Positions 8,107 to 26,930 of a DNA stretch of 64,000 bases are shown here, piece after piece; the first letter of the stretch is position 1, and every line of letters starts with the position of its first letter. Location of the stretch: the NCBI GenBank assembly GCA_031277165.1, contig JAISLT010000104.1, positions 1 to 64,000 of the forward strand, written 5' to 3'. The notes below the pieces were generated by a model that was given only the letters and a program-made list of their open reading frames with translations, did no database searches and was not told where the DNA came from. This DNA is from Spirochaetaceae bacterium. Its GTDB lineage: Bacteria; Spirochaetota; Spirochaetia; Treponematales; Breznakiellaceae. The translations under genes and the position numbers were made by a program.

Positions 8107-9519
8107 ATGCCCCTGCGCCTATACAATACACTTGGCCGCACCACGGAAGAATTTAAGGCCCTTGTACCGGGAAAAGCGGGATTCTACGGATGCGGCCCCA
8201 CGGTGTATAACTACGCCCATATTGGGAACCTTCGGGCCTACACCACCCACGATGTTCTTGTCCGTACCCTTAGAGAGCGGGGTTACGGGGTAACCCATGT
8301 GATGAATATTACCGACGTGGGGCATCTTTCCGGCGACGGTGATCTGGGGGAAGACAAGATGCTTAGGAGCGCCGTGGAACGGGGCAAAACCGTGCTGGAG
8401 ATCGCCGAATTCTACGCCCACGCTTTTTTTGCCGACATTGACCGGATGAACATCCTTCGGCCCGGCATTGTATGCAGGGCCACCGAACATATCGGCGACA
8501 TGATAACCCTGATAAAACGCATAGAGGCCAACGGCTATACCTATTCGGCCGGGGGGAACCTGTACTTTGACATAAGCCGGTTTGAACACTACGGGGACCT
8601 GGGCATGCTCCAGATACAGAACCTAAAGGCCGGGGCCAGGACGGATCTGGATCAAAACAAGCGTAACCCCGGGGATTTTGTCCTGTGGTTTACCAAGAGC
8701 AAATTCGAAAACCAGGCCCTAACCTGGGACAGCCCCTGGGGAAGGGGGTATCCTGGGTGGCACATCGAGTGTTCAGCCATGAGCATACGGTACCTGGGCG
8801 AAACCTTTGACATCCACGCCGGGGGGATCGATCATGTCCCGGTCCATCATACCAACGAAATTGCCCAAAGCGAGGCGGCCACAGGAAAGCATCCCTGGGT
8901 TAGGTACTGGATCCATAATGAATTTTTGATTTTGGACAGGGAAAAAATGTCAAAAAGCGCCGGGGGCTTTTTAACCCTGCAGAGCCTGGCCGATGCGGGG
9001 TACGATCCCCTGGATTACCGTTATTTTTTACTTGGGGGCCACTACCGCAGCCAGCTGCAGTTTTCCTGGGAAAGTCTGGAGGGGGCCCGGAATTCCCGCA
9101 AATCCCTTTTGGACCGGATCCGGGGTTTGGGGGCAAAACCGGTGCAGCCCGGCGCCGGTTCCCCTGCCCTTGCACGGCTTGCGGCCTTTCACGAAGCCCT
9201 GGACGACGACCTTTCCACCCCCCGGGGTTTGGCGGAACTATGGGGCCTGCTTCGGGACAACACCATAGCCCCCGGAGAGGCCCTGTGGGGGCTTCTGCAG
9301 ATGGACAGGATCCTGGGGCTTAAACTGGACGCCGCCATGGAGCCGGTTCCGGGGGAGGATCCGGCATTTGCCGCCGAAATAGAAGCGGCCATAACCCGGC
9401 GGGCCGCGGCTAAGGCCGCCAGGGATTTTGCCCTGGCCGATTCGATCCGGGGGGAGCTAAAAGAAAAGGGCATAGTCCTGGAAGATACCAAAACCGGTAC
9501 CCTATGGCGCCGCGGATAA
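8107..9519 (+). CDS. cysS: Cysteinyl-tRNA synthetase
   Basis: CysRS is a class I synthetase that charges tRNA-Cys with cysteine using ATP. The 470 residues are a normal length. It shows the zinc ligand Cys29 in GCGPTVYNYAHIGN, with the HIGH-type motif HIGN at 38-41; WHIECSAMS and HHTNEIAQSE supply further zinc ligands; KMSKS is at 280-284. The C-terminal helical anticodon region ends ARDFALADSIRGELKEKGI, the usual DALR-like tail. The start at 8107 has GGAG nearby and a promoter at 8058. A small hairpin follows the stop before the ECF sigma gene. Confidence 0.97.
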   Translation: MPLRLYNTLGRTTEEFKALVPGKAGFYGCGPTVYNYAHIGNLRAYTTHDVLVRTLRERGYGVTHVMNITDVGHLSGDGDLGEDKMLRSAVERGKTVLEIAEFYAHAFFADIDRMNILRPGIVCRATEHIGDMITLIKRIEANGYTYSAGGNLYFDISRFEHYGDLGMLQIQNLKAGARTDLDQNKRNPGDFVLWFTKSKFENQALTWDSPWGRGYPGWHIECSAMSIRYLGETFDIHAGGIDHVPVHHTNEIAQSEAATGKHPWVRYWIHNEFLILDREKMSKSAGGFLTLQSLADAGYDPLDYRYFLLGGHYRSQLQFSWESLEGARNSRKSLLDRIRGLGAKPVQPGAGSPALARLAAFHEALDDDLSTPRGLAELWGLLRDNTIAPGEALWGLLQMDRILGLKLDAAMEPVPGEDPAFAAEIEAAITRRAAAKAARDFALADSIRGELKEKGIVLEDTKTGTLWRRG

Positions 9520-9520
9520 C

Positions 9521-9540
9521 ACAACGGCTTTAACCGTTGT
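9521..9540 (+). terminator. Hairpin between cysS and ECF sigma gene
   Basis: ACAACGG (9521-9527) pairs perfectly with CCGTTGT (9534-9540) across a 6-base loop. There is no T-run, so it is at best a weak terminator or attenuator; the next gene begins 15 bases later. Confidence 0.4.
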
Positions 9541-9555
9541 AACGAACGAGGAAGA

Positions 9556-10116
9556 ATGTTGTTTTCAGGAACAGGAGGGGGTTCCCCGGCACAGAAAGAA
9601 GACACCTTTCGCCGTTTATATACTTCGGTTTTTCCGGTTCTGTTCCGGGTGGCGTATCGTATTGCCGGGAGCGAAGAAGCCGCGGAGGATCTTTGCCAGG
9701 AAGCTTTTTTTAGATACTACGAGAAAGAAATGTCCTTTCCCAACCCGGACGAGGCAAAGTACTGGCTTATCCGGGTGGTTAAGAATTCGACGCTGAACTA
9801 TGCAAAACGAAAGGAACGGGAGCGAAGGGCATACCAACGGGCGTTTAGGGAGATCCAAAGGCCCGACGAAACGGCGGAAACGGATTTGTTAAAGCAGGAA
9901 ACCAAGGTAGAAGTACAGGAGGCCCTTGACAGGCTTCCCGAAAAACTGCGGACAGTGCTAATATTAAAGGAATACGGAGAATTGAATTACAGAGAAATAG
10001 GCAGAATTTTGGGCATCAGTGAAGGAAATGTTAAAATACGGGTTTTTAGAGCACGGGAACGGCTGACCGCCCTGCTGGCGGGCGCCGGTGTTTCCGGTAC
10101 GGGAAAGGATGGGTAA
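9556..10116 (+). CDS. ECF-type RNA polymerase sigma factor
   Basis: This 186-residue sigma factor directs RNA polymerase to a small stress or envelope regulon. Region 2 lies at about 20-60 (VLFRVAYRIAGSEEAAEDL, then CQEAFFRYYEK) and region 4 near the end (LPEKLRTVLILKEYGELNYR, then EIGRILGISEGNVKIRVFRA), with no region 3 or extra C-terminal domain. The putative anti-sigma gene follows after one base. From memory a sigma-24-like gene sits after cysS in T. pallidum (TP0092), so this is a conserved locus. Its targets cannot be read from the window; envelope stress is a reasonable inference from the membrane anti-sigma factor. Confidence 0.93.
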   Translation: MLFSGTGGGSPAQKEDTFRRLYTSVFPVLFRVAYRIAGSEEAAEDLCQEAFFRYYEKEMSFPNPDEAKYWLIRVVKNSTLNYAKRKERERRAYQRAFREIQRPDETAETDLLKQETKVEVQEALDRLPEKLRTVLILKEYGELNYREIGRILGISEGNVKIRVFRARERLTALLAGAGVSGTGKDG

Positions 10117-10117
10117 T

Positions 10118-10651
10118 ATGTGTCCTAATCGTGAAATTCTTTCAATCTACTTCGACAAAGAATTAGACTCCCCCTGGAAAGAAAAAGTACAAAAGCATCT
10201 GGAGGGCTGTGCACCATGCCGGGCGCAGCTGGAAAAGTACCGGCGGATCCGGCAGGAACTTACCGGACCGGAAAACAAAGGGGCCATGGAACGGGTCTGG
10301 GACAAGCTTAGCTTTGCCGCAGGCGGCCGGGAGCGTAAAAGCCGGGGCGGCAGGTTCTGGTCCGGTTCGGTCTCTATTCCGATCCCCGCCGCGGCCGCCG
10401 CGGGGCTTGCCCTTATTCTGGCCCTGGGCGCCCTGGCCGCCCAGCGGACCGTCAAGGCGGACGAACCGCCCCTGGCGGGGCTGGAGGTCCAGGACATGGT
10501 ACCGGCCACGGACATGGCAAGCCTGTTACAGTATCTGGAAAGCGAAAATTCCCCGGAAATGGTCATTATCCGTCTGCCCGATACGACCTTTAAAAATGCC
10601 GGGGAAACCACCATGCTTAGGGCGGCGGATTACAGGGGCAGCTCCCGATGA
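10118..10651 (+). CDS. Zinc-finger anti-sigma factor, membrane-bound
   Basis: The N-terminus has the ZAS signature: His27-x3-Cys31-x2-Cys34 in KHLEGCAPC, with Cys2 as the likely fourth ligand. One hydrophobic helix (about 87-107, PIPAAAAAGLALILALGALAA) spans the membrane and puts the C-terminal third in the periplasm. I chose the ATG at 10118 because AAAGGATGGG lies just upstream and it gives a normal zinc-finger N-terminus; a GTG at 10088 would overlap the sigma gene by 29 bases. It begins one base after the sigma stop and overlaps the following gene by 4, so the three are one operon. It should bind and hold the ECF sigma factor. Confidence 0.88.
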   Translation: MCPNREILSIYFDKELDSPWKEKVQKHLEGCAPCRAQLEKYRRIRQELTGPENKGAMERVWDKLSFAAGGRERKSRGGRFWSGSVSIPIPAAAAAGLALILALGALAAQRTVKADEPPLAGLEVQDMVPATDMASLLQYLESENSPEMVIIRLPDTTFKNAGETTMLRAADYRGSSR

Positions 10652-11289
10652 ATGTACCCGGGAGGGTCGCGCCGGGGTCTGTGGGAATCCGGCTTGGGGT
10701 ACTGGCGTCCCTAACCTGGGTGCTTTTTAATGCCCCCAGAATCTGTGCCCAGGACCTGCTGCTGGATGAACTGCCCGCCCTTAAGGAAAAAGCCCTGGTC
10801 CTGCGGATCACCACCCGGATTGAAGAAAACAGCCAGGAGGTCTGGAACGCATACAACTCCAAGGTAACCATCCCGGGACGGCCCGTGAGCATTAAGCTTG
10901 TGGGGGAAAATCTTGTCATTTCCATCCAATTTACCCCCTACACCAGGGGCGAAGGCAAGAACGCCCTGGTTGCCCAAAGCCAAATTTGGCTTAACGTACC
11001 GGACAAGGGTATACACTATAAAACAGCCACCCATTCGCTGCCCATGGAATATGGGGAGCCGATTTACTTCTTCCCCCTGGGTTCCGATGCGGCGGCGGAT
11101 AACCCCCATATAGAGCTGCTGCTTACCCTTTACCGGTACGGCGAAGAGCCGGAGGCGCCGCCGGATCCCGCAGATCCCGCGGCGCCTGTCCCCGCCCTTC
11201 CCGAAGAAAGCCCGGGGCAAAACCGGGAAACCCCTCCCACCCCCAGGGCTTCCTCCCGTTCCGGGAAGGCCCTAAGCGTCCAGCGCTGA
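10648..11289 (+). CDS. Exported protein of the ECF sigma operon
   Basis: The 213-residue product has a signal sequence (IRLGVLASLTWVLFNAPRICAQ) and a mature domain with alternating strands (KALVLRITTRIEENSQEVWN, VSIKLVGENLVISIQFTPY). The last 45 residues are rich in Pro, Ala and Glu and look disordered. I know no family for it. Its ATG overlaps the anti-sigma stop (ATGA) and its TGA shares one base with the next ATG, so it is translationally coupled on both sides. A periplasmic ligand or sensor for the membrane anti-sigma factor is possible from context only. Confidence 0.65.
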   Translation: MNVPGRVAPGSVGIRLGVLASLTWVLFNAPRICAQDLLLDELPALKEKALVLRITTRIEENSQEVWNAYNSKVTIPGRPVSIKLVGENLVISIQFTPYTRGEGKNALVAQSQIWLNVPDKGIHYKTATHSLPMEYGEPIYFFPLGSDAAADNPHIELLLTLYRYGEEPEAPPDPADPAAPVPALPEESPGQNRETPPTPRASSRSGKALSVQR

Positions 11290-11972
11290 TGGTTACCGTT
11301 ATCTCCCTGGGAGGATCCATCGTCGCCCCCGGCCAAGTGGATGTCTCCTTTTTAAAGGACCTTCGCGCTTTAATCGGGGATTTTCTGGACCGGGACGAAA
11401 AGCGCCGCTTTATTCTGGTAGTGGGGGGCGGAGGACCCGCCCGGGCTTGGCAGAATGCGTACCGGGAAATAGTACCTTCGATAAAGGACGAAGATGCGGA
11501 CTGGATCGGGATCATGGCCACCCGGCTTAACGCCCAGCTGGTAAAGGCCGTCATGGGGGGTTGGTGTACCCAGGAGGTAATTATTAACCCCTCTGCGGTG
11601 GGCCCCTTTGTGGGGCGGATCCTGGTGGCCGCGGGGTGGAAACCGGGTTTTTCGTCGGATTACGATGCGGTGCTTCTGGCAGAGTGTTTTCAGGCGAATA
11701 TGGTGATAAATCTTTCCAATATCGAACAGGTCTATACCGGCGATCCACGGAAGGATCCCTCGGCCAAACCCATAGACAGGATCTCCTGGGATGATTTTAG
11801 AACCCTGGTGGGCGATGAATGGGTCCCCGGCAAAAATGTCCCCTTTGATCCGGTGGCAAGCCGCCACGCGGCAAAATTGGGCCTTCAGGTTATCTGCGCC
11901 GGGGGCCGGGATCTTCCGAACCTGCAGAAGATCCTCTCGGGGGAATCCTTCCTGGGAACGATTATTTCCTAA
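11289..11972 (+). CDS. UMP kinase, archaeal-type amino-acid-kinase fold
   Basis: This 227-residue protein has the amino-acid-kinase fold: N-terminal VISLGGSIV, the glycine loop [10 protein letters not shown], the nucleotide/UMP-binding [12 protein letters not shown] and [14 protein letters not shown] close to the end. The pattern fits the short archaeal/spirochaete type of uridylate kinase (UMP + ATP to UDP + ADP) rather than bacterial PyrH, which shares the fold but has different loops. Other amino-acid-kinase members (glutamate or carbamate kinase) are less likely. It starts one base inside the stop of the exported protein, so it belongs to the sigma-factor operon, which is an odd partner for a nucleotide enzyme. 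Confidence 0.82.
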
Positions 11973-12040: not shown

Positions 12041-13699
12041 ATGGAAATTTCAGCCCTTCAAAATGCCCGGTATGCCTATACCCCCAAGCTGCCCGGCTGT
12101 TTATCCTGTCCGGTGGAGGAAATAACCCTAAAAATGGGGGGCCCCACCGAAGCCATAGCGGATCAGAATGAACTACGAACTCTTTTTAAGCATAGCTACG
12201 GTAAACCCATAGCCCTGTGTACAAACGGAAAAGGGGATATGACAAAGCGCCCCCTTACCGCCGGGGTAATTCTTTCCGGCGGACAGGCTCCGGGGGGGCA
12301 TAATGTTATTGCGGGACTTTATGACGGTCTTAAAAGGGGAAACCCCGGTTCAACTCTGTACGGTTTTTTAGGAGGGCCCAGCGGGCTCTTGGAAGATCAG
12401 GCCGTGGAAATTACCGGTGAACTTGTGGGCCAATACCGGAACACCGGCGGATTTGATATTATCGGATCGGGCCGGACAAAAATCGCCACCCCGGAACAAT
12501 TTGCCGCGGCCCTGGAAACCGCCACAAAACGGGGCCTGGATGCGGTGGTTATCATCGGCGGCGACGATTCAAACACCAACGCCGCCCTGCTGGCGGAATA
12601 TTTTACCGGTCAAGGGTCCCCGATCCAGGTAATCGGATGCCCCAAAACCATTGACGGAGACCTTAAAAACGAATACATCGAAGCGTCCTTTGGCTTTGAC
12701 ACCGCGGTAAAAACCTACAGCGAACTTATCGGCAACATAGAACGGGACGCCACCAGCGCAAAAAAATACTGGCATTTTATTAAGCTCATGGGCCGTTCGG
12801 CCAGCCATATCGCCCTGGAATGTGCCCTGCAAACCCAGCCCAATGTATGCCTAATCTCGGAAGAGGTGGAAGCAAAGGGCCTGTCCTTAAGCCAGATCGT
12901 GGAGGAGATCTGCGCCTCCATTGTTAAACGGGCCGAAGATAAAAACAATTTTGGGGTGGTGCTGGTTCCCGAGGGGCTTATCGAATTTGTGCCGGAAATG
13001 AAGAAGCTTATTAAAGAGCTGAACGATCTAATGGCCGGCTATGCCGATGAATTGGGGGCGATCACTAATTTTATTGATCAGGTATACTGGCTTGACCAGC
13101 ATCTTTCATATGAATCCCTGGACCTTTTTAAAACCCTGCCCCCCGCAATCGGACGGCAGCTTCTGGCGGACCGGGATCCCCATGGCAACGTCCAGGTTTC
13201 CCGGATCGAAACAGAACGGTTACTTATCGAAATGGTAGAAACTAAACTGGCGGAATTAAAAAAAATAAACGCCTATACCGGTAAATTCAGCGCCCTGGCC
13301 CATTTTTTTGGCTACGAAGGGCGCTGTGCGTTCCCCAGTAATTTTGACGCGGACTATTGTTATTCCCTGGGTTTTACCGCCTTTGTTCTTATCGCCTCGG
13401 GCCTTACGGGGTATATCTCCAGCGTCAAAAACCTGGTAGCCCCGGCGGAACAATGGCTTCCCGGGGGTATCCCCCTAACCATGATGATGAACATGGAAAA
13501 ACGCCACGGTTCTTCCAAACCGGTAATTAAAAAAGCCCTGGTAGAACTGGCGGGGGCGCCCTTTAAGGAATTTGCCGCCAGGCGCGGAAACTGGGCTAAG
13601 CAAACCTGCTACCAGTTCCCCGGCGCAATCCAATACTACGGTCCTCCGGAAGTCTGCGACCAGCCCACCAAGACCCTTAAACTGGAACACGGCGGCTAA
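12041..13699 (+). CDS. pfp: Pyrophosphate--fructose 6-phosphate 1-phosphotransferase
   Basis: This enzyme phosphorylates fructose 6-phosphate with PPi instead of ATP, reversibly, as the key step of spirochaete glycolysis. The 552 residues match the long (about 550) plant-beta/spirochaete type. Motifs are [19 protein letters not shown] (PPi loop), [18 protein letters not shown], the catalytic [19 protein letters not shown], and [23 protein letters not shown] in place of the ATP-type GGDGS agrees with PPi use. It is monocistronic or at the head of the DUF2339 operon, whose first ATG is 1 base past its stop. Expression may be governed by the overlapping promoter and ribosome-site palindrome. Confidence 0.95.
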
Positions 13700-13700
13700 C

Positions 13701-16430
13701 ATGGAGATGGCATTTATCCTGGGGATCATCGCCATTTTTCTCTTTTCGTTTTTTGGCGTGATCTGGCTCCTAAAACGGACCGGGAATATTAATACGGAGT
13801 TAAAGAAACTGCGCCAGGATATAAGTGCCCTGCGGAATTCCATGACGGCCCCTTGCCCGGCGAAGGCTGCCGGGACGGTGGAAATAAAGCCGGCGGCGGA
13901 AGCGGTGCCCTCCCCTCCCCCGGCCCTGGAAACAAAGCCGGCGGCGGTTTCCAGATCCGGCGCCGGAATCGCCGCATTTATTCACAGCGGCAACATGTGG
14001 GCCGCCGGGGGCGTTCTTCTGCTTATCGCCGCCTTTGCCATGCTTATGACATATATGGCAAGGCAGGGATTTTTTACCTTGGAAATGCGCATCGCCGCCG
14101 CCGCCCTGGCGGGGATCCTCATGCTTGTTTCCGGCTGGGTCCTGCGAAAACGGCGGCCCCTGTATTTTTTAATACTCCAGGGCGGCGGTACCGGCATCCT
14201 GTACCTAACGGTGTTTGCCGCCTATAAACTTGCGGGGTTCCCTGTCCAGGCCGCCTTCGTTCTAATGAGCCTGCTGATCCCCGCGGCGGTGATCATTGCC
14301 CTGTTTCAAAATTCCCAGGTGCTGGCCTTCTTTGGATTTTTGGGAGGCTTTGCCGCTCCGATCCTGCTTTCTACCGGGGAGGGCTCCGTAGCGTTTCTCT
14401 TTGGGTATTACACGATCCTGTCCCTGGGTATTTTGGCAATAAGCTTTTTTCGTCCCTGGAAATTCACCGCCCTGCTGGGTTTTACAGCGGCCTTTGGGAT
14501 AAGCCTCCGGTGGATCTTTACCGCCTATGCCGCGGATACCTTTGTCCTAACCGGGATCTTTCTCTCTGTCTTTATTGTCCTTTACACCCTGCAGGGGATG
14601 ATTCTGCTGATAAAGAACCCCGGAACTTCCGGCGGGGCAAGGGGCCTTTACCTTGAATCCCTGCTTATCCTGGGAACGCCCTTCTTAGGGGCCCTGGGCC
14701 AATGGAAGGTCTTTTCGGTTATACGGCACGGCTATTCCCTGGCTTCTTTTATCTTTGCGGTCTTTTACCTTATGACGGCCTTTGTTCTGCTGGGGATCCG
14801 CAGGAAATACCCCCAGGGCAGGGCGATCCCTGCGTTTCTTATCGAAGCATACGGCGCCCTGGCCCTGTTCCTGGCAAACCTTATGATCCCCCTGGAACTG
14901 TCCGGTTCCCTTACCATGGCAATCTGGGCGGCGGAGGGGGTTCTGGTCTACTACCTGGGCATACGAAGCAAAAACATTCGGATCCTTCTGGGGGGGCTTA
15001 TTATCCACGCCGCCGCCGCCGTTGATTTTATGGTGGAAACCCCCGGCGCCATATACGGCCCCCTGCGGAGCGCCGCCTTTACCGGGGCCCTCCTTATCGC
15101 AGTTTCGGCCTTTGTAATATTGGCGCTGACAATAAAATCCAAAGAAACCCCGGAACAGAAACCGTTGGTCTTTCTTTCTAAAAACTGGTACCGGACTATC
15201 CTTGTGCTTTGGATCCTCCTGTGGTGGTTCATCGGCTGGGGCATGGAACTGGGACGGATCCTTATCAACGGAGATTCCTTTATGCCGTGGTTTTTTATTA
15301 CCGCATCGGCCAGCGCCCTGCTGTTCTTTGTACTTTCAAAACCGCTGGGGCTTGCCGTTTTAAATTTGGCCGCGGCGCCGTCCCTGGTGATTGCCTGTGC
15401 CGGGATGCTGCGCCCCCTGGGGGCCCGGGCCGCCGGGCTTTTCTTTAACGATCCCACGGCGATCTTTACCTATAACTACTTTGCAGGTCCCTGGCTTTGG
15501 GGATGGCTTAGTTTTGCCGCGGTCCATGGGGGGATCCTGATCCTGTCAAGAAAACGGGCCGGTACAGAAACAGATCCCGCCGGAAATTCCGGAATCCCCG
15601 GACAGATTCCCCGCCCCGATCCACGGAGCGGAATTGTACGCCTTTCCGCCGCAATAAGGGCCCCCTGGACATTCGCCGGGGTTCTTATTATCCTGCCGGT
15701 TCTTACCGCTTCCCTGCGGTATGGAACAAGCTCCCTTCAACTTGCCCCATCGTGGACAGCCCTGGCAGGCATAGGCCCCCTGCTCACGGGCCTGCTTGTG
15801 ATAAGCTTCTTCTCCGGGCGGATTGCCGGTATGGAAAAAAACTTCCGCCTTTTTACCGGCGTCCTCCTCCCATGGATCCTCGGCGGTACCGCGGCACTTT
15901 GGTTTACCATAACCCTTTTTATGTACGGCAATCCCGCCCCCCTTCCCCTGTACATTCCCGTGCTGAACCCCCTGGAACTGCAGGAAGCCCTCTGCGCCGC
16001 CGGGGTGATCCTGTCCCAGACCGCACTTCGCAGGGCAGGCCTCCCTTCCTTGAGCCGTCCCGGGGTGCTTGTTCTGGCGGATGTCATGGGTTTTTTCTGG
16101 CTCGCCGCAATGCTTGCCCGCAGCGTCCATTTTTTTGGTAACATCCACTACAGTGTATTGTTATCCGATGCCTTTAACCTGGGGCTGTTTATTTTGGCGG
16201 CCCTTTGGGGGATAGGCCATATTATCCTGGGCCACCGCCTGGCCCTGCGATCCCTATGGATAGCCGGGACAATCCTAACGGTAATGGATGTGGGCAAACT
16301 GCTGCTGTTTGACATGGCCACCACCGGAACCGCCGTTAGAATAGCCTCGTTCTTTATCGCGGGGATCGTGCTCCTCTTTATCGGCTGGGCCGCGCCGGTT
16401 CCTCCGGCTTTAAAAAAGGGACAGCCATGA
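13701..16430 (+). CDS. DUF2339 family multi-spanning membrane protein
   Basis: About 909 residues with a single N-terminal helix (MEMAFILGIIAIFLFSFFGV), a short Ala/Pro-rich cytoplasmic or periplasmic stretch (60-90), then more than twenty predicted hydrophobic helices to the end. Length and layout fit DUF2339, a polytopic inner-membrane family of unknown function. The frame is open upstream to 13572, but that part lies inside pfp and gives a non-hydrophobic lead, so I use the ATG at 13701. It overlaps the following DUF3999 gene by 4 bases. The two families occur side by side in other bacteria, suggesting one complex. GGDGS-like or transport motifs were not seen. Confidence 0.82.
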   Translation: MEMAFILGIIAIFLFSFFGVIWLLKRTGNINTELKKLRQDISALRNSMTAPCPAKAAGTVEIKPAAEAVPSPPPALETKPAAVSRSGAGIAAFIHSGNMWAAGGVLLLIAAFAMLMTYMARQGFFTLEMRIAAAALAGILMLVSGWVLRKRRPLYFLILQGGGTGILYLTVFAAYKLAGFPVQAAFVLMSLLIPAAVIIALFQNSQVLAFFGFLGGFAAPILLSTGEGSVAFLFGYYTILSLGILAISFFRPWKFTALLGFTAAFGISLRWIFTAYAADTFVLTGIFLSVFIVLYTLQGMILLIKNPGTSGGARGLYLESLLILGTPFLGALGQWKVFSVIRHGYSLASFIFAVFYLMTAFVLLGIRRKYPQGRAIPAFLIEAYGALALFLANLMIPLELSGSLTMAIWAAEGVLVYYLGIRSKNIRILLGGLIIHAAAAVDFMVETPGAIYGPLRSAAFTGALLIAVSAFVILALTIKSKETPEQKPLVFLSKNWYRTILVLWILLWWFIGWGMELGRILINGDSFMPWFFITASASALLFFVLSKPLGLAVLNLAAAPSLVIACAGMLRPLGARAAGLFFNDPTAIFTYNYFAGPWLWGWLSFAAVHGGILILSRKRAGTETDPAGNSGIPGQIPRPDPRSGIVRLSAAIRAPWTFAGVLIILPVLTASLRYGTSSLQLAPSWTALAGIGPLLTGLLVISFFSGRIAGMEKNFRLFTGVLLPWILGGTAALWFTITLFMYGNPAPLPLYIPVLNPLELQEALCAAGVILSQTALRRAGLPSLSRPGVLVLADVMGFFWLAAMLARSVHFFGNIHYSVLLSDAFNLGLFILAALWGIGHIILGHRLALRSLWIAGTILTVMDVGKLLLFDMATTGTAVRIASFFIAGIVLLFIGWAAPVPPALKKGQP

Positions 16431-17794
16431 ACAGCTCCGTCGTTTCCCCCTCTTCCTTCCCCGGGGCCTTGGCGGCTATCCTGGTTTTTCTTTTTCAAGC
16501 CCCCTCCGGCGCCGGGGAGACACCGGCAGTCCCCGGCCCTGTGGATGATTTTCCGGGGAAGATAACAATTACCGGAAACCCCGGAGGTCTACTTTCGTTT
16601 GAGGTTCCCGAAGAACTATACCGGGGCCTTAAACGGCCCAATATGGGGGACCTGCGGATCTACGATTCCCAGGGAAATCCCGCTCCCTTTCTTGTCCGCG
16701 GCGTAAAAGGAACCGTCACGATCCCCCCGGAAAAAGAGGTACCCCTGCTGGTCTGGGATGAAAAATCCGGGCGCTTTACTTCCCCGGAGCTTGAAATTAC
16801 CGTTTCGGGATCGGCGGTTACAATCCTCAGCGGCGGAGCCGGGGAAAGGGACGGATCCGGCGCTTTATATTTGGCGGATCTTTCGGATATCAAAGAGGAC
16901 GATCCATGGCCTTCCAAACTGGTTTTGGATTTTCAGCAAACGGAATTTTTTAATGCGCCGCTTTTGCTGCGAAAAAGCGATGATCTAAGCCGCTGGGAAA
17001 ATTACGGCCCCATACAAACCGCCGCTTTTTACAATAACCCAGGGACGGACAGGAATGAATTTAATATACCCCGGGCCCGGTACATACTTCTTGACTTTAA
17101 CGGGAAGGTTCCACCGGTACATTCCGCCCGGATCCGTTTTAATCCGGTGGAAAATCCTCCGGTGCTGCGGGAAACGGTTTTTTCCGGCACAAGGGGCGCC
17201 GATGGAAAAACGGTACGGTATTATACGGAAGGATACTTTCCCGTGCAGAAACTTTTTTTTAGCATTTCAAAGCCCGATTCCATAGGCTTTAGTATCCGGG
17301 ATCGAAGGACCGAAAACGACGACTGGCGTTATGCCGGCAAAGCCACCGTTTACCGGATCGAGGCGCCGGGGGAGGCCCCCCTGATCAACGGCCCCATCGA
17401 TGTTTCCGGCCAGGGTCCGTATTGGGAACTGGCCATTTCGGGGGAACAAACCTGGACCGAAGTTCCCGCCATGGCCTTTCTCTGGGAGCCCCGGGAAATA
17501 GTGTTTCTTGCCCGGGGGGGCGGTCCCTGGACCCTTGCCTATGGTAACGGCAAATACGGTCCCCAGGAATCGTCCTTAAACATACAGGAAGGAACGGAAA
17601 TTTTTCCCGCCCGCCTGGGTCCGGCCTCTTATGTTGAACCGGAGTCCGGCGGAATGGCTGGTACGGAACGGTGGAGGCAGATAATACTGTGGGGGGTCCT
17701 GGGTCTTGCCGCCGTAGTCGTAAGCGGTCTTGCCTTTTATGCCATACGATCCATAAGCAGCGAACAAAAAAATAATATGGAGGATAAACCATGA
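16427..17794 (+). CDS. DUF3999 family exported, membrane-anchored protein
   Basis: This 455-residue protein has an N-terminal signal (FPGALAAILVFLFQAPSGAG), a large beta-rich domain exposed outside the cytoplasm, and a C-terminal membrane helix (IILWGVLGLAAVVVSGLAFY) with a short basic/acidic tail. It starts with DLRIYDSQGNPAPFLVRGV, a recognisable DUF3999 segment. Its ATG overlaps the DUF2339 stop (ATGA) and its own stop overlaps the next ATG in the same way, so three proteins are made in coupled translation. Function is unknown; partnership with DUF2339 is known from other genomes. Confidence 0.78.
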   Translation: MNSSVVSPSSFPGALAAILVFLFQAPSGAGETPAVPGPVDDFPGKITITGNPGGLLSFEVPEELYRGLKRPNMGDLRIYDSQGNPAPFLVRGVKGTVTIPPEKEVPLLVWDEKSGRFTSPELEITVSGSAVTILSGGAGERDGSGALYLADLSDIKEDDPWPSKLVLDFQQTEFFNAPLLLRKSDDLSRWENYGPIQTAAFYNNPGTDRNEFNIPRARYILLDFNGKVPPVHSARIRFNPVENPPVLRETVFSGTRGADGKTVRYYTEGYFPVQKLFFSISKPDSIGFSIRDRRTENDDWRYAGKATVYRIEAPGEAPLINGPIDVSGQGPYWELAISGEQTWTEVPAMAFLWEPREIVFLARGGGPWTLAYGNGKYGPQESSLNIQEGTEIFPARLGPASYVEPESGGMAGTERWRQIILWGVLGLAAVVVSGLAFYAIRSISSEQKNNMEDKP

Positions 17795-19878
17795 AAAAAA
17801 TTTCCCGCCTTGGTATTGCCCTATTGCTTGTTCTATCCGGAGGGGCCCTCGTACCCTCCGGTGACGGAAAAACCGGAACCGGGGAAAGTTCCGGCCTTTT
17901 TGCCCAGGGTTCCCCGCCGGGAAACCCGGCGCTTCCGGTACGGCGGATCGCCCTTTTTTCTTCCGGCGTGGGGTATTTTGAACATTCCGGCGTCCTTTCC
18001 GGTCCCGGAGAAATAAGTCTTAGCTTCGATGCGGACGCGGTAAACGACGCCCTTAAATCCCTTACCATCGGCGATCCCGCTCCGGGGGCCTCCCCTTCGG
18101 TAAGCTATCCATCGGAGGAAACCCTGGAACGGACCCTGGAAAGCCTGGGCATCGATCTTTCAGGAAACCCCGGTACTGCGGAAATTTTTGCCTCCCAGCG
18201 GGGGGAGGAAATAGAAATATCCGCCCCCAATCCCATCCGGGGCCGTATCGTGGGGGTAGAATTCCGGTTCCTCCCGGGAACCGCAGGCTCCTCCCGGGAA
18301 GCTTTTCTTTCGCTCTTTACCGCCGAAGGTATACGGGTTATTGCCCTTAAGGATATTGTTTCGTTTACCTTTATTGATTCCGCCCTTAACGCGGATCTAA
18401 AACGGGCGCTGGATCTAATTGCCGCCCACCGGGCTTCCCGGACCAGGACCCTGACGGTTACCCTGGACGGAAGCGGCAGCCGCAGCGTCGCCTTAAGTTA
18501 TGTGGTGGCCGTACCGGTATGGAAAGTTTCTTACCGCCTGGACATGGGCCGGCAAAAACCCCTCTTTCAAGGCTGGGCGATCATCGATAACGACAGCGAT
18601 ACGGACTGGAACAATGTGGAACTTTCCCTGGTTTCGGGCCGGCCGGTTTCGTTTATTCAACGGCTGTATCCCCCCTATTATTACACCAGACCTACCCTGC
18701 CCTTGGCCATCGCCGGAACCGCCCAGGCCCGGGTCCATGCGCCGGGGTACGACCGCACAAATCTGGCAGACTCCGGTGCGGATGCAAAAGAAGAAACCAA
18801 AGCGCTCTATGAGGACAGCACCGTAAGGCAGCTTTCCAGATCCCGGGGGGCGGCGGCCCCCTCGCCCGAACCGGCGGGGAATATCACGGCGGTCCAGACA
18901 GCGGCAAGGGGAAGCGCCGCGGGGGATCAGTTTGCCTTTACGGTTAAAAATCCGGTTACCCTTAACCGCAGACAGAGCGCCATGATACCCCTGGTAAATG
19001 GTAATGTGGAGGCGGTAAAAACCCTGATCGTTTCCGGGTCCAGGGCCCTGGGGGGAACCATCCACCCTGAACTGGCGGTGGAACTTACCAACACCACAGG
19101 AACAAAACTTCCCGCGGGACCCATCACGGTCTTTGACGGTGGAACCTATGCGGGGGATGCGCTGATCGAATTTTTAAGCGACGGCGCCAAGCGCCTTATC
19201 ACCTACGGGGAGGACCTTTCCGTTAACGCATCCGCCGCAATTTCAATAGACCGGCTGGTAAGCACCGTCACCATCAGTGCGGGGCTTATGACCATTAACC
19301 GCCGGCAGGTGTACAAACGGACCTATACGATACAAAACGGATCCGCCGAAACCAGACGGCTTATTATCGAACACCCCATCACCGGCGGAGCATCATTGAA
19401 GGAACCGGCAAACCCCTTGGAAAAGACCGATTCCCTGTACCGGTTTGTCCAGAACCTTCCCGCCCGGGGGGAACTGGCCTTTACGGTACAGGAAGAAAGC
19501 CCCCTCCAGGAACGGATAAGCTTAAGCCAGCTCCGGTTGGAGAACATCCTAAGCTTTAGTACCAACCAGGAGATCCCCGGCAATATCCGGGCGGCCCTGG
19601 CCCGGGCGGCGGAACTGCGCCGAAAAGCCGACGGAGCAAAACAGGCCCTGTCTGATATTCAGGCCCGCAGCGCCCGGCTTATGGCGGATCAGAACCGGAT
19701 ACGAAGCAATCTTACCGCAGTGGGCAGCGACAGCGACCTGGGCCGGGAATATATGCGGCGGATGACCGAGCTGGACCGTGACATCGACGGCATTAACGGA
19801 GAGATAGATACGGCCAACGGCCTAATCCAGTCTACCCAGAAGGAACTGGATGATTATATTGCGGGGTTAAAACTTTAG
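17791..19878 (+). CDS. DUF4139 domain exported protein
   Basis: A 695-residue protein with a signal peptide (MKKISRLGIALLLVLSGGAL). The middle and C-terminal parts hold the DUF4139 domain: LSYVVAVPVWKVSYRLD, GWAIIDNDSDTDWNNVELSL and later DGGTYAGDALIEFL and ITYGEDLSVNASA are typical. The last 100 residues (AELRRKADGAKQALSDIQAR onward) form a long coiled coil. Such proteins are exported, and no enzymatic role is established. It ends the operon started by pfp/DUF2339 and is followed by hairpins at 19900-19938. Confidence 0.8.
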   Translation: MKKISRLGIALLLVLSGGALVPSGDGKTGTGESSGLFAQGSPPGNPALPVRRIALFSSGVGYFEHSGVLSGPGEISLSFDADAVNDALKSLTIGDPAPGASPSVSYPSEETLERTLESLGIDLSGNPGTAEIFASQRGEEIEISAPNPIRGRIVGVEFRFLPGTAGSSREAFLSLFTAEGIRVIALKDIVSFTFIDSALNADLKRALDLIAAHRASRTRTLTVTLDGSGSRSVALSYVVAVPVWKVSYRLDMGRQKPLFQGWAIIDNDSDTDWNNVELSLVSGRPVSFIQRLYPPYYYTRPTLPLAIAGTAQARVHAPGYDRTNLADSGADAKEETKALYEDSTVRQLSRSRGAAAPSPEPAGNITAVQTAARGSAAGDQFAFTVKNPVTLNRRQSAMIPLVNGNVEAVKTLIVSGSRALGGTIHPELAVELTNTTGTKLPAGPITVFDGGTYAGDALIEFLSDGAKRLITYGEDLSVNASAAISIDRLVSTVTISAGLMTINRRQVYKRTYTIQNGSAETRRLIIEHPITGGASLKEPANPLEKTDSLYRFVQNLPARGELAFTVQEESPLQERISLSQLRLENILSFSTNQEIPGNIRAALARAAELRRKADGAKQALSDIQARSARLMADQNRIRSNLTAVGSDSDLGREYMRRMTELDRDIDGINGEIDTANGLIQSTQKELDDYIAGLKL

Positions 19879-19975: not shown

Positions 19976-21448
19976 TTAAAACTTCCAGCTTAGGATAGTC
20001 TTTATATATGCGTTATCCCGGTACTGTCCCAGTTCCCCGTCGGGGTTTCCACCAAAGAAACCGGCGGCAAGTTCAAGCCCCAGATCGTTCTTGGTCCAGC
20101 TTAGGGCGGGCATAATAAGAAAATCACGGCCCTCGATACCCCAAAGGGCGGAAAGTTTTGTTTCCAATTGATCCATCAAAAAACGTTTGGAGAAGATGGC
20201 GGTAATCCTGGTGGAACTTAGATCCGTTCCTTCCTCGGTGTCGGCCAAGGGAGCGTTGTCGATCCTGCGGTGCATAAGGATTATACTGCCGTTGCCTTGC
20301 AGGTTAAGGTTTATTCCCCAGAACAGATCCCTATCAAACCCCAGGGACCACACCACCGCGGGGTTATACACCGCCCCGTTATCCCCGGTTAAATCGCCGG
20401 TAATATTTATTCCCCCCTCGGCGCGGAAATTAAATCCGCCGATAACCCGGGCAAAATCAAGACCCAGTTGATGGTAGGGATTATAATCTATCGGCACATG
20501 CCTTCGCAGACCTTCCTCTATGGAATCGAGCGAACCGGGAGCGATAGAACCGAGGGCTTCGATGTCTACTTTTCCTATGGCAATCCGGGGCAGCCGTCCA
20601 AAGTAATATTGAAATCCCAGATCCGAAGAACCGGTGGTGGTGGTAAAACGCAGTCCCCCCTGGGCGTATGCCAGGGACAGGGTGTCGCCGTAGATCTTGC
20701 CCGAGGCAAGCCTATCGGCCATATCGGATTCCAGGGCAAAAAAATCCGTCCCGGACCAGCCGTAGATACTATTCAGATCGGGGTAATAACCGGCCAGCAT
20801 TGTTTTTATTGAAGCCAGCTGAGCGGGGATCCAGCGGCCCTCCAGGGCATACTTATGGCCTTGAAACCAGGGAACAAACACCCCCTCCAGCTTGGAGAAG
20901 GAATCCATGTTCCAGGAAACATGAACCATGGGCCGGGCCATTTTAATGTTCCGGGGCGTTCCTATGGCGCTTGGGTCCGTATAATCCAGGGGATTGATCA
21001 CGTCTAGGGGGCCAAAGCTGTCTGCTTTGCCCCAGGTAAGTTTCCGCAGCCCCGCCTCCAGATCCACGGGGCCGAAAAAAAACCGTCCATAGGCTTCGTC
21101 CAGTGAAACCGGAGAAACATGCTGAAACTCGCTTCTAAGGTTAAGGTTTATCACCGCCTCCGCCACGGAGGACGAGGCGGTAAAGTTTATCTTGCCGGAA
21201 AAAATATCCCCCAGACGGGTGTTCCCAAATTTGGCGGAGGAGGCAAGATCGCCGAAAAAAAGGTTCAGTGCCGCAGAAATCTCTCCCCCAAGTTTTAGGG
21301 ACAGGGAGGAGGATCTTTCCTGCGGCAGCCCAAAACCATCCGGGGACTCTTCAAAACCAAAACCGTCCTCCTGGGCGCCGGTATAAACGGCGGTCAGAAC
21401 AAGCAGGCTTATAAGCGCAGCCCCGCGCCGGAACGGGGACCCCTTCAC
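19976..21448 (-). CDS. Outer-membrane beta-barrel protein of the MMPL cluster
   Basis: The 490-residue product has a signal peptide (GAALISLLVLTAVYTGAQ), a short acidic Phe/Gly-rich lead (EDGFGFEESPDGFGLP, residues 27-42) and a long amphipathic-strand domain ending with Phe (KTILSWKF), the barrel C-terminal signal. Repeated segments such as LGGEISAALNLFFGDL and LRKLTWGKADSFGPLDVINP resemble the DUF1302 group of outer-membrane proteins. It sits at the 3' end of a minus-strand operon with a LolA-like protein and an MMPL transporter, overlapping the LolA-like gene by 4 bases. A trans-envelope lipid-handling system is the natural reading of this trio, by inference. Confidence 0.75.
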   Translation of the reverse strand: MKGSPFRRGAALISLLVLTAVYTGAQEDGFGFEESPDGFGLPQERSSSLSLKLGGEISAALNLFFGDLASSAKFGNTRLGDIFSGKINFTASSSVAEAVINLNLRSEFQHVSPVSLDEAYGRFFFGPVDLEAGLRKLTWGKADSFGPLDVINPLDYTDPSAIGTPRNIKMARPMVHVSWNMDSFSKLEGVFVPWFQGHKYALEGRWIPAQLASIKTMLAGYYPDLNSIYGWSGTDFFALESDMADRLASGKIYGDTLSLAYAQGGLRFTTTTGSSDLGFQYYFGRLPRIAIGKVDIEALGSIAPGSLDSIEEGLRRHVPIDYNPYHQLGLDFARVIGGFNFRAEGGINITGDLTGDNGAVYNPAVVWSLGFDRDLFWGINLNLQGNGSIILMHRRIDNAPLADTEEGTDLSSTRITAIFSKRFLMDQLETKLSALWGIEGRDFLIMPALSWTKNDLGLELAAGFFGGNPDGELGQYRDNAYIKTILSWKF

Positions 21449-22224
21449 CGGACTTTTCCTGTCTCGAGGTAGGACGTAGAAAAGACCGGTTCGGGAATAT
21501 CCTGATCATACCTAAGATTTTCTACCGTAATGGTAGTATTGGTTCCCTTTTCTATGGTGGTCATCCTGGTTTTAATGGGACTAAGCCTGCCCTGGACATC
21601 CCGTAATTCCAGAATCTCCAGGGTCTTTACATGGACTCCCCGTTTATCGTAAAGCTCTACTTTGTGGTTGACCGAGTTTGATTTTTCGATCCACTGGACC
21701 ATCTTTGAATACTGGTAAGAACTGTTCTTAGGCCGGGATTCAATTACATAGCATGGTTTTCCGTTGTAGGTTTCTTCCCTAAGAATTACATGGGTGTCTA
21801 AATTCGGATCCCGGTCGTTGGAAGAAATATCGTCGTAGGAAAGATCCGTCCCCATAAAGCTTCCTGAACCTTCCGAAGCGGCGATACGGCGGGTCTTTCC
21901 CAGGGAGGGAAGAAATATCCACTGGTTGTTAGCGGTCCCCTCTTCAATGGTAAGAAACCGGGTCCCCGCCACGGCGGCGGGCTGGATAAATTCAATTATC
22001 ATCCTGGAATTGCCGGAGGAACTGTCCTTGGAATACTGGTTAATAAGCCGTTCGGTGGTCGAGCCGTTTTTGGCGGTAATTACCAGCCGCGAACGGCTTA
22101 GGGTTGTGGCGGCGGTGATCCTATCCCGGGACTGCCGTACTATGGTAAGGGCATCCTGGGAATGGGCGCAAAAGGTTCCTCCCATAAGGGTCCATAGGAC
22201 AAATACACAGATCTTTGCTTTCAC
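21445..22224 (-). CDS. LolA-like outer-membrane lipoprotein-sorting protein
   Basis: This is a periplasmic LolA-like protein of about 259 residues, of the group often found with MMPL/RND transporters. It has a signal peptide (KAKICVFVLWTLMGGTFCAHSQ) and the features of the family: RSRLVITAKNGSTTERLINQ, RFLTIEEGTANNQWIFLPSLG, GTDLSYDDI and CYVIESRP. I prefer the GTG at 22224, with GGAGG six bases before, over ATGs at 22248 or 22239, which would overlap the transporter gene by 14-23 bases and lack a ribosome site. It may carry a lipid or lipoprotein from the transporter to the outer-membrane partner. It overlaps the barrel gene by 4 bases. Confidence 0.82.
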   Translation of the reverse strand: MKAKICVFVLWTLMGGTFCAHSQDALTIVRQSRDRITAATTLSRSRLVITAKNGSTTERLINQYSKDSSSGNSRMIIEFIQPAAVAGTRFLTIEEGTANNQWIFLPSLGKTRRIAASEGSGSFMGTDLSYDDISSNDRDPNLDTHVILREETYNGKPCYVIESRPKNSSYQYSKMVQWIEKSNSVNHKVELYDKRGVHVKTLEILELRDVQGRLSPIKTRMTTIEKGTNTTITVENLRYDQDIPEPVFSTSYLETGKVR

Positions 22225-22225
22225 A

Positions 22226-24904
22226 TCAGCCTCCATTGGCATTGACAAATTTTGGTTTAAACCGCAGCAGTATCGCCGGTATAAGGGTTAAACTTACCAG
22301 GGCGCTGGCCGCCATGGTTAAAGCAATCAGAAGCCCAAAATCTCCCAGCATATTAAACCGGGAAAAGATCAGCACCCCAAAACCTGCGCCCACGGAAAGG
22401 GCATTGATAATTATAGCCTTTCCCGATATGGCAAAGGTTGCTTTAATTCCATGCCGGGCATATTCCCGCTTAAAAGCTTCCATGTAGTGGATCGTATAGT
22501 CTATGCCGATCCCCACCGCCAGGCTGGCAATCATGGAAGTCCCTATGTTAAGTTTAATGCCTAAAAATCCCATGACGGCAAAATTTAACAGGATAGAGAT
22601 GGAAAGGGGAATAATGCCCACGCATCCGGCCGCTAAGGACCGGTTTGAAATGGCAATAATAAGAAACACCAGGAACAGGGAAATAATAAGCGAAATAAGC
22701 TGGGAGCGCACAACCTGTTGATTAAGGGAGGCCTCCACCAGGGGACTTCCCCCCACGGTTACTCTAATGTTTTTGGGGAAACGGGCTGCGACAAAGCGGT
22801 CTATCTCTTCCAAGGCCCGGTTTGTATCGGATTCCCCCAGGGTACGAAGCTGTACCGTGGTTTTTATGGCCGTCGGCTCCAGGGGATCGTTGGAATAGGA
22901 ATCGATATCTCCCGAAAGAAGGATCAGATAATTGGACACCAGCGCCGTCAATTCCCGGGGATCGGATTTTCCGTACCGGGCAGGATCCGCGGGCACTTCA
23001 TAATAGGCGGCCCCTTCAAAGTTGGTAATCTTCTTTAACTCCCAGATCAGATCCTCCACGGTTGGATTTGCCCTTTCTCCGGAGTTGGCGGCGGCGCTTA
23101 ACAGGGCGGTTAATTCTTCCAGGGTATGAACCGCCGTTCCTTCAACGGGGGCTTCCTCTTCCATAGGGGGGGCATCGTCCTTTTCAAATACCCCAAAGCT
23201 AAATTCCCGGGCATCGTCGATTCCAAAATTGCCGAACCCAAAATCATCCGCCGTTTCCGGGGTAAACCCAAAACTGTCTTCAATAAAAGAAGCCTCCGGA
23301 AGCTCCCCGGCGGGGTCTTCGTTAGCGGATCCGGCGGGTCCCGCCAAACCGCCGGGACTTTCGTCGGCGTTAAAAACCTGGTTAACCCGTTTAATCAGGT
23401 CCGTAAAACCCATGACCTTGCCGGCCTCGGGGACGTTCTTTTCCAGGTGCCTGTTAAGGGCATCCATGGCGCTAAGAGAGGCCGGATCCAGCAGGATCTC
23501 GCTGGAATCCGCCTCGGCCACTATGCTGACCACCTTGGATCCGCCAAAATATTCCCGGATAAAATGATCGGACCTGTAAATATCCGTATCCGGTTTAAAG
23601 TATTCCACAAAAACATTATCAATAATAATCCGGGAAAAGCCGGCGATGGAAACAACCAGCACCAGCCCGGCGACGCACAGCACCGCCCACCCATGTCCGG
23701 CGATGGCGGAGAAAAATTCCGCCACCGCTCCGCTCGTACGATCCCCCCGGACAGGGTTTTTTTTAAACCGGGGTCCCCGGATAATAAGCAGGGAGGGTAT
23801 AAATGTGACGGCCACCGCAAAAGAGGTCAGTACGCCAAAGCTGGCAAAAATGCCGAATTCCCGGATGGGAAGCACCGTGGTAAAACAAAAGGACAGAAAA
23901 CCCACAAAGGTTGTCAGGGAAGCAAGGAACAGGGGCTTAAAGAGCCGTTTAACCAGGGCCAGTACCAGTTCCCGGTGGGTTTCCCGATCCATCCCCCCGG
24001 GCCGGTCCCCGGAGCCCAGATCGTCCATATAATGGGTGATCACATGAATTCCGTAGGCGCTCCCCACGGCCACGAGGATCACCGGAAGCACCGTGGAGAT
24101 AACCGAAAGTTTAATGTCAAACAGGGACATGGCCCCCATGGACCATATAACGGCAATTACCACCGTAAGCAGGGGCAGCGCCACCGCGGACAGCCGGCGG
24201 AACGAAAAGAACAGAATAAGCAGGACCACCAAAATTACCAGGGGTACCAGCAGGACCAGGTCCGACCTAATCGACTCGTTTATGGTGGCGCTGATCACCG
24301 GAATTCCCGTGACGTAAACCTCCGCCTGATCCGTGAACATTTCCCGGGCTATATCCCGGACCCGGATAAAATTATCCACCGCCTCGGGCTTCCCCGCATC
24401 ATCGGCGGCTATGTTCATGGGCACCAGAATTTGGGTGGAAGAAAAGTCATCGGAAACCAGGGCCCGTTTGTACATATCCCAGGAAAGGAGCCGTTTCTTA
24501 AGCAGGGAAACCTCTTCCCTGGTCCCGGTAAAATCCTCGGGCAGCAGCTTTTCCACCACGATAGATTCGCTGTCCCCGGTGATATACTGGGCATTAACAA
24601 TCGAAGTAACCGGATCGATCATGTCGATGGATTCAACCCTGTCCACATAGTCCCGGATACGTTTAAGGAAGGACACGTCAAAGACATTCCCATCGGTTCT
24701 GCGCAGACCCACCAGGATAAAAAGGGAGCTTCCAAAGGTATCGTCGATATAGGCGGAAACCTGCCGGGCGGGGTCCTCCGGGGAAATAAACCGGAAATTG
24801 TTATTGTCCAATTCCAGCCGGGGAAGCTGGAATGCAAAGAACACCGTGATAGCCCCAATCAGGGCAAGAATGACAATTGGAAACCGGTACATTTTTTTTA
24901 TCAT
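22226..24904 (-). CDS. MMPL/RND-family transporter
   Basis: An 892-residue inner-membrane protein with two halves, each one helix (about 8-26 and 405-424) followed by a large periplasmic loop and a block of five helices (about 215-375, and the last 190 residues). This is the plan of MMPL/HpnN/Patched-like exporters; GSAYGIHVITHYMDD and VGIGIDYTIHYMEAF are the paired signature helices. The second loop has a disordered acidic insert with Phe-Gly motifs (DSFGF, DDFGFGNFG, EFSFGVF; 543-573). Start ATG 24904 has AAGGT upstream. A promoter with an inverted repeat lies at 25015-25043. Transported substrate is unknown, and lipids are likely for the family. Confidence 0.9.
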   Translation of the reverse strand: MIKKMYRFPIVILALIGAITVFFAFQLPRLELDNNNFRFISPEDPARQVSAYIDDTFGSSLFILVGLRRTDGNVFDVSFLKRIRDYVDRVESIDMIDPVTSIVNAQYITGDSESIVVEKLLPEDFTGTREEVSLLKKRLLSWDMYKRALVSDDFSSTQILVPMNIAADDAGKPEAVDNFIRVRDIAREMFTDQAEVYVTGIPVISATINESIRSDLVLLVPLVILVVLLILFFSFRRLSAVALPLLTVVIAVIWSMGAMSLFDIKLSVISTVLPVILVAVGSAYGIHVITHYMDDLGSGDRPGGMDRETHRELVLALVKRLFKPLFLASLTTFVGFLSFCFTTVLPIREFGIFASFGVLTSFAVAVTFIPSLLIIRGPRFKKNPVRGDRTSGAVAEFFSAIAGHGWAVLCVAGLVLVVSIAGFSRIIIDNVFVEYFKPDTDIYRSDHFIREYFGGSKVVSIVAEADSSEILLDPASLSAMDALNRHLEKNVPEAGKVMGFTDLIKRVNQVFNADESPGGLAGPAGSANEDPAGELPEASFIEDSFGFTPETADDFGFGNFGIDDAREFSFGVFEKDDAPPMEEEAPVEGTAVHTLEELTALLSAAANSGERANPTVEDLIWELKKITNFEGAAYYEVPADPARYGKSDPRELTALVSNYLILLSGDIDSYSNDPLEPTAIKTTVQLRTLGESDTNRALEEIDRFVAARFPKNIRVTVGGSPLVEASLNQQVVRSQLISLIISLFLVFLIIAISNRSLAAGCVGIIPLSISILLNFAVMGFLGIKLNIGTSMIASLAVGIGIDYTIHYMEAFKREYARHGIKATFAISGKAIIINALSVGAGFGVLIFSRFNMLGDFGLLIALTMAASALVSLTLIPAILLRFKPKFVNANGG

Positions 24905-25479: not shown

Positions 25480-25554
25480 AAAGGCACCTAATAGTTTCGC
25501 GAACTCCGCAGAAGCGGGGGAATTCAGTCAAAGATCGAGAAGATGGAGGAAAGT

Positions 25555-26919: not shown

Positions 26920-26930
26920 GAGGGAATGGC

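What the first reader, a model, noticed from the sequence alone, without database searches (positions are those of the whole stretch)
13701..19878. DUF2339-DUF3999-DUF4139 three-protein operon
Three proteins of unknown function are coupled by 4-base overlaps: polytopic membrane, anchored beta-rich, and secreted with coiled coil. DUF2339 with DUF3999 is a known pairing, the third member here suggests a larger envelope complex, next to PPi-phosphofructokinase.
Basis: partly seen in the sequence, partly recalled or inferred. Interest (0 to 1): 0.5.

Follow-up and report, generated by a model that had tools for sequence, protein, structure and literature searches.

The report
Spirochaete membrane-defence operon, Arc3 type
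A gut spirochaete carries a known two-protein membrane-defence module, which in other bacteria protects against membrane-dissolving enzymes, in one operon with a third secreted protein that turns out to be an old neighbour of the site rather than an obligate partner.

Summary
In detail: DUF2339 (13701-16430), DUF3999 (16427-17794) and DUF4139 (17791-19878) overlap by 4 bases each and follow PPi-phosphofructokinase (pfp) by 1 base. DUF2339+DUF3999 is not of unknown function: it meets the published definition of Arc3A/Arc3B, a module that in Pseudomonas aeruginosa protects against phospholipase toxins and stops lysophospholipid build-up (PMC8926400, PMC12663445). DUF4139 lies directly downstream of DUF3999 in 14 of 18 related treponeme loci, so the linkage is real. 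But pfp-DUF4139 is the resident pair: many relatives have pfp followed by DUF4139 with nothing between, including one of the same genus, and the Arc3 module comes and goes between them (11 changes on the DUF4139 tree). Outside this family the linkage vanishes: 0 of 4 other Spirochaetota and 0 of 12 Pseudomonadota DUF3999 genomes, with co-occurrence at chance in the latter (3 seen, 3.0 expected). Three treponeme loci hold the module without adjacent DUF4139. A dedicated three-protein complex is not supported; a co-transcribed envelope-protection operon is. Upstream lie an ECF sigma factor and a zinc-finger anti-sigma gene, a possible envelope-stress link.

The parts
13701..16430 (+). DUF2339 membrane protein, Arc3A-type (909 aa)
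   Evidence: PF10101 280.2 bits over 97-901; about 21 hydrophobic segments; model about 26 helices, pLDDT 71.5
16427..17794 (+). DUF3999 protein, Arc3B-type: signal-like N-terminus, C-terminal membrane helix, no cysteine (455 aa)
   Evidence: PF13163 145.6 bits; hydropathy; no lipobox cysteine
17791..19878 (+). Secreted DUF4139-domain protein with C-terminal helical hairpin (695 aa)
   Evidence: PF13598 33.7 bits; profile-profile match to canonical DUF4139 proteins, 97.7%; model
12041..13699 (+). PPi-dependent 6-phosphofructokinase (pfp), first gene of the predicted transcription unit
   Evidence: TIGR02477 834.5 bits
11988..12016 (+). Promoter-like element TTGTCC-17-TACAAT before pfp
   Evidence: scan (the region as a whole has no excess of such sites); same hexamers in two genomes of the same genus and a near match in a third relative
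9556..10116 (+). ECF-type sigma factor, upstream in the same gene string
   Evidence: PF04542, PF08281; ECF and zf-HC2 kept upstream of pfp in 17 of 23 relatives' loci with room
10088..10651 (+). zf-HC2 anti-sigma-like protein with one membrane helix
   Evidence: PF13490 25.1 bits, cut-off 22.2; hydropathy
10648..11289 (+). Protein without Pfam match, signal-like N-terminus, in the gene string
11289..11972 (+). Amino-acid-kinase-fold protein
   Evidence: PF00696 101.3 bits

Best explanation
The DUF2339 and DUF3999 genes are an Arc3A/Arc3B module, set between pfp and a resident DUF4139 gene and read with them as one transcription unit. Arc3A (polytopic, inner membrane) with Arc3B (periplasmic domain held by a C-terminal helix) would protect the membrane against phospholipase A attack by keeping lysophospholipids from building up, as shown for P. 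aeruginosa; how they do so is unknown there too. The DUF4139 protein is a separate secreted envelope protein that occurs with or without the module and is co-expressed with it here, not an obligate subunit. Shown: gene order, families, linkage pattern, gain or loss of the module. Inferred: transcription unit, localisation, protective function in this organism.
For: PF10101 and adjacent PF13163 are the criteria that PMC8926400 used for Arc3A and Arc3B (passages). There Arc3A is the gene most needed against Tle3, its loss raises lysophosphatidylethanolamine and monolysocardiolipin, distant Arc3A homologues complement, and Arc3A and Arc3B co-precipitate; PMC12663445 confirms arc3A against other lipase effectors (passages). 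pfp directly followed by DUF4139 without the module: same-genus G198, and G201, G217, G249, G248, G250, G226, G177, G210 and more. Module presence changes 11 times on the 70-row DUF4139 tree. Distances of the module track pfp and DUF4139 alike (r 0.79-0.82), as expected for vertical descent with repeated loss; G204 shows decay in place (DUF2339 internally deleted, DUF3999 gone).
Against: No experiment in a spirochaete was found. P. aeruginosa Arc3 was assayed against injected T6SS lipases; nothing here shows that this organism meets them. The treponeme DUF3999 proteins do not show the N-terminal lipidation that the paper predicts for P. aeruginosa: the window protein has no cysteine at all, and only 4 of 16 treponeme proteins have any cysteine in the first 40 residues. 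The DUF2339 model gave no informative fold match. The conserved tight DUF3999-DUF4139 junction (8 of 14 loci with exactly 4 bases overlap) and one relocated triple (L135) leave room for a functional tie to DUF4139.
Confidence: 0.62

Rival explanations
1. The three proteins form a dedicated envelope complex in this family: Arc3A in the inner membrane, Arc3B in the periplasm on a membrane helix, and the DUF4139 protein as a periplasmic third subunit.
For: DUF4139 directly downstream of DUF3999 in 14 of 18 treponeme loci, with 4-base overlap in 8 of 14; triple away from pfp in L135, and a DUF3999-linked second DUF4139 copy in G250 besides the pfp-linked one; all 7 DUF3999-bearing relatives of 97 also have DUF4139, P 0.03 without correction for kinship.
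Against: DUF4139 in 60 of 97 relatives against DUF3999 in 7; module without adjacent DUF4139 in L126, L134, L137, and no DUF4139 found in the genome of L134 by two searches; no extra covariation over pfp; no linkage in 4 other Spirochaetota or 12 Pseudomonadota genomes.
Confidence: 0.18
2. The neighbourhood is an envelope-stress regulon run by the ECF sigma factor and anti-sigma upstream; Arc3 and the MuiA-like DUF4139 protein are two of its outputs, much as P. aeruginosa SbrI/SbrR drives muiA. (Compatible with the best explanation; it concerns regulation.)
For: ECF sigma and zf-HC2 genes upstream in the same string with gaps of at most 68 bases; kept upstream of pfp in 17 of 23 loci with room; PMC10418997 passage: ECF SbrI, controlled by SbrR, promotes muiA transcription and responds to envelope stress.
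Against: A sigma-70-like element lies directly before pfp and is kept in close relatives, so the tail may be read on its own; no ECF promoter motif was identified; 6 of 23 loci lack the sigma gene; the DUF4139 protein fails the MuiA family cut-off.
Confidence: 0.2

Closest known systems
Arc3 (arc3A-arc3B, PA5114-PA5113) of Pseudomonas aeruginosa, PMC8926400
   Same: DUF2339 protein with an adjacent DUF3999 gene; many membrane segments; C-terminal membrane helix on the DUF3999 protein
   Different: No lipobox cysteine in the window DUF3999; third gene is DUF4139 instead of estA; preceded by pfp; no Gac/Rsm evidence here; fewer membrane segments than the 35 reported
MuiA family (TIGR02231; DUF4140-DUF4139 proteins)
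   Same: DUF4139 domain shared (hhalign 97.7%); secreted; a long helical segment; ECF sigma/anti-sigma genes nearby, as with SbrI/SbrR and muiA (PMC10418997)
   Different: No DUF4140; helical hairpin lies after the DUF4139 domain; score 38.2 against a cut-off of 112.6

Membership tests
Arc3A (PF10101/DUF2339) | PF10101 match and many transmembrane segments | tested here: met
   280.2 bits; 21 hydropathy segments; about 26 long helices in the model
Arc3B (PF13163/DUF3999) | PF13163 match encoded next to the Arc3A gene | tested here: met
   145.6 bits, 4-base overlap with DUF2339
Arc3B (PF13163/DUF3999) | N-terminal lipidation to the outer membrane, as predicted in P. aeruginosa (not part of the paper's search criterion) | tested here: not met
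   No cysteine in the window protein
Arc3 pathway | Protects against phospholipase toxins and limits lysophospholipids | not testable with these tools
   Needs genetics and lipid analysis
DUF4139 (PF13598) | Score over the curated cut-off | tested here: met
   33.7 against 31.8, marginal; 14 of 14 homologues match at E 0.01 or better; hhalign 97.7% to canonical members
MuiA (TIGR02231) | Score over the curated cut-off of 112.6 | tested here: not met
   38.2 bits
MuiA (TIGR02231) | N-terminal DUF4140 domain (presence in the canonical proteins shown) | tested here: not met
   No DUF4140 match in the 14 homologues, present in 9 of 9 canonical proteins

The most novel reading that the evidence does not exclude
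In this family of gut treponemes the Arc3 lysophospholipid-defence module has recruited a secreted DUF4139 protein as a third, translationally coupled component under an envelope-stress sigma factor, giving a three-part membrane guard that the searches did not turn up in print.
Probability: 0.17. Interest if true: 0.55.

Novelty: new variant of a known kind. Interest (0 to 1): 0.3.

Why it matters
It places a recently described and mechanistically unexplained defence module in gut spirochaetes, and shows it as a losable insert beside a conserved secreted protein of unknown function. Close relatives with and without the module at one locus (for instance the window's genome and G198, same genus) make the fitness role of Arc3 outside pathogens a concrete question. 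It also corrects an over-reading: neighbours in a tight operon need not be a complex.

Tried and rejected
Dedicated three-protein complex: tested by co-occurrence, linkage outside the family, tree mapping and distance covariation; not supported. Solved homologues: none for DUF3999 or DUF4139 by sequence at E up to 1. Fold search of DUF4139: best Foldseek hit 8pn9_E, a chain of a human oligosaccharyltransferase complex (E 1.9e-4, probability 0.54, TM 0.11), too weak to use; Sm/Hfq-like matches over residues about 125-203 at Z about 7.5-8.2, near the level of common arrangements; hairpin matches are generic. Fold search of DUF2339: no match at E up to 0.001, only generic helical-repeat matches. 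Neither absence shows a new fold. DUF3999 was not modelled (two predictions allowed). Remnants of the pair in G198's 291-base pfp-DUF4139 gap: none (best E 0.22). Promoter scan: 8 sites against 6.7 +/- 2.9 expected, so only the conservation of the pfp site carries weight. Literature: DUF3999 or DUF4139 gave 2 papers, on Leishmania and Anisakis by title (not opened); DUF2339 gave 10, of which only PMC8926400 was opened; searches for MuiA led to one useful passage.

Counting choices: G247 was labelled as lacking the pair because its DUF4139 lies on a broken contig, G204 as lacking it because it is decayed, and 4 of 74 rows under 600 aa were dropped (among them L138, which has the pair). In one search L133 and L136 were dropped as duplicates of L088 and L085, and loci with under 3.5 kb upstream were not counted. 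Start codons in relatives were chosen by script (nearest to the projected start), so junction lengths carry that uncertainty. The protein searches find divergent members less well than profiles would.

Full report
What is there. Both junctions are ATGA overlaps, and DUF2339 starts 1 base after the pfp stop. The same strand carries, without a gap over 68 bases, cysS (8107), an ECF sigma factor (9556), a zf-HC2 anti-sigma-like gene (10088), a gene without Pfam match (10648), an amino-acid-kinase gene (11289), pfp (12041), DUF2339, DUF3999 and DUF4139. A convergent set follows: a 490 aa protein without Pfam match that looks like an outer-membrane protein (my reading of the sequence), a LolA-like protein (PF17131, 208.5 bits) and an MMPL/RND transporter (PF03176, 175.6 bits).

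What the pair is. PMC8926400 (passages read) names PA5114-PA5113 arc3A-arc3B, defines homologues by PF10101 and by adjacent PF13163, and shows that Arc3A is the gene most critical against the phospholipase effector Tle3, that its loss lets lysophosphatidylethanolamine and monolysocardiolipin rise, that four of the Arc3A relatives tried complement, and that Arc3A and Arc3B associate; Arc3B was auxiliary and the mechanism is stated to be unknown. PMC12663445 (passages) supports arc3A in protection against other lipase effectors. The window pair meets the definition. Differences: the window DUF3999 has no cysteine and so no lipobox.

Is the third gene part of it? Inside the family, yes as a neighbour. 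A scan of the genome-contig collection (one genome per species, 84,980 species by the tool's description) with six family DUF3999 proteins gave 20 loci, 18 of them Treponema or Spirochaetaceae bins (that these come from termite guts is recalled from the kind of records, not read from them). DUF4139 is directly downstream in 14 of 18, absent there in 3 (L126, L134, L137), and 1 contig ends (L133). In the 14, the DUF3999-DUF4139 junction is a 4-base overlap in 8 and within 26 bases in 13; DUF2339 overlaps DUF3999 in 16 of the 19 loci where both were placed, Betaproteobacteria included.

But DUF4139 is the resident. Of 97 relatives, 60 have a DUF4139 homologue, 13 a DUF2339 and 7 a DUF3999, own genome included. 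pfp is directly followed by DUF4139 without the pair in nine genomes, including same-genus G198 and single-contig genome G226, and in further ones. On the DUF4139 tree (70 rows, 14 with the pair) the pair changes state 11 times, at least 10 forced by well-supported branches, against 13.0 for shuffled labels (39 of 500 shuffles as low). G204 shows decay in place: DUF2339 fragments with an internal deletion and no DUF3999 between pfp and DUF4139, across two contigs. Module-to-DUF4139 distances correlate (r 0.79 and 0.81, n 14) no better than module-to-pfp (0.80 and 0.82, n 12). This fits vertical descent with repeated loss; repeated gain is not excluded.

Outside the family the link is gone. In 198 Spirochaetota genomes Pfam finds DUF3999 in 5; in the 4 others than the window's, DUF4139 is on different contigs in 3 and not found in 1, while DUF2339 sits beside DUF3999 in all 4. 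In genomes of another family of the order (G019, G031, G126, G165, G173) DUF2339 and DUF4139 lie far apart on one contig. In 249 Pseudomonadota genomes, 12 have DUF3999 over the cut-off and 63 a DUF4139 match; 3 of the 12 have both, 3.0 expected, one pair 2.5 Mb apart and two on different contigs. In the genome of L134 neither a Pfam nor a family-profile search found DUF4139.

What DUF4139 is. The protein has a signal-like start and no other hydrophobic segment. The model (pLDDT 73.2, pTM 0.45, 14 sequences) shows an N-terminal strand-rich part, a beta-rich middle and a helical hairpin 597-692, with 1-45 and 283-380 unreliable. Canonical DUF4139 proteins from the phylum carry DUF4140 as well (9 of 9); none of the 14 homologues does, and the window protein scores 38.2 against the MuiA cut-off of 112.6. 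It is a divergent DUF4139 protein with a different architecture, not a MuiA member.

Regulation. ECF and zf-HC2 genes lie upstream of pfp in 17 of 23 relatives' loci with at least 3.5 kb of room. PMC10418997 (one passage) says that the ECF factor SbrI, held by SbrR, drives muiA in P. aeruginosa and responds to envelope stress. This parallel is suggestive only: a sigma-70-like element TTGTCC-17-TACAAT before pfp is the same in two same-genus genomes and nearly so in G204, which argues that pfp onward can be read alone.

Verdict. A real, conserved, lineage-limited operon joining a known defence module to a resident secreted protein. The defence role is transferred by family, not shown here. Interest is modest.

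Noticed in passing
window 9556-10651: ECF sigma factor with overlapping zf-HC2 anti-sigma-like gene between cysS and the pfp string, kept in 17 of 23 relatives' loci with room.
   Followed up: partly
window 19976-24904 (-): Convergent set of an outer-membrane-type protein, a LolA-like protein and an MMPL/RND transporter, often kept next to DUF4139 in relatives; may be a lipid or lipoprotein transport set.
   Followed up: partly
window 59809-62859 (+): Protein joining ferredoxin and iron-hydrogenase domains to a histidine kinase and receiver domain (PF02906, PF00512, PF02518, PF00072), a possible hydrogen or redox sensor.
   Followed up: no
window 9519-9556: Inverted repeat ACAACGG-CTTTAA-CCGTTGT in the short gap between cysS and the sigma gene; partly kept in two same-genus genomes.
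   Followed up: no
window 25543-27947 (+): Cytochrome bd oxidase subunits I and II (PF01654, PF02322).
   Followed up: no
L140:9875-10795 and L141:9983-10843: DUF3999 homologues of only 307 and 287 aa in otherwise intact operons, possibly shortened forms or sequence errors.
   Followed up: no
L091, L092: DUF2339 genes without a detectable DUF3999 behind them or elsewhere in the genome (G223, G227), like the solo DUF2339 of G019 and its kin.
   Followed up: partly
L089 and L098: Genome G250 has two DUF4139 copies, one behind pfp and one behind DUF3999 on another contig.
   Followed up: partly
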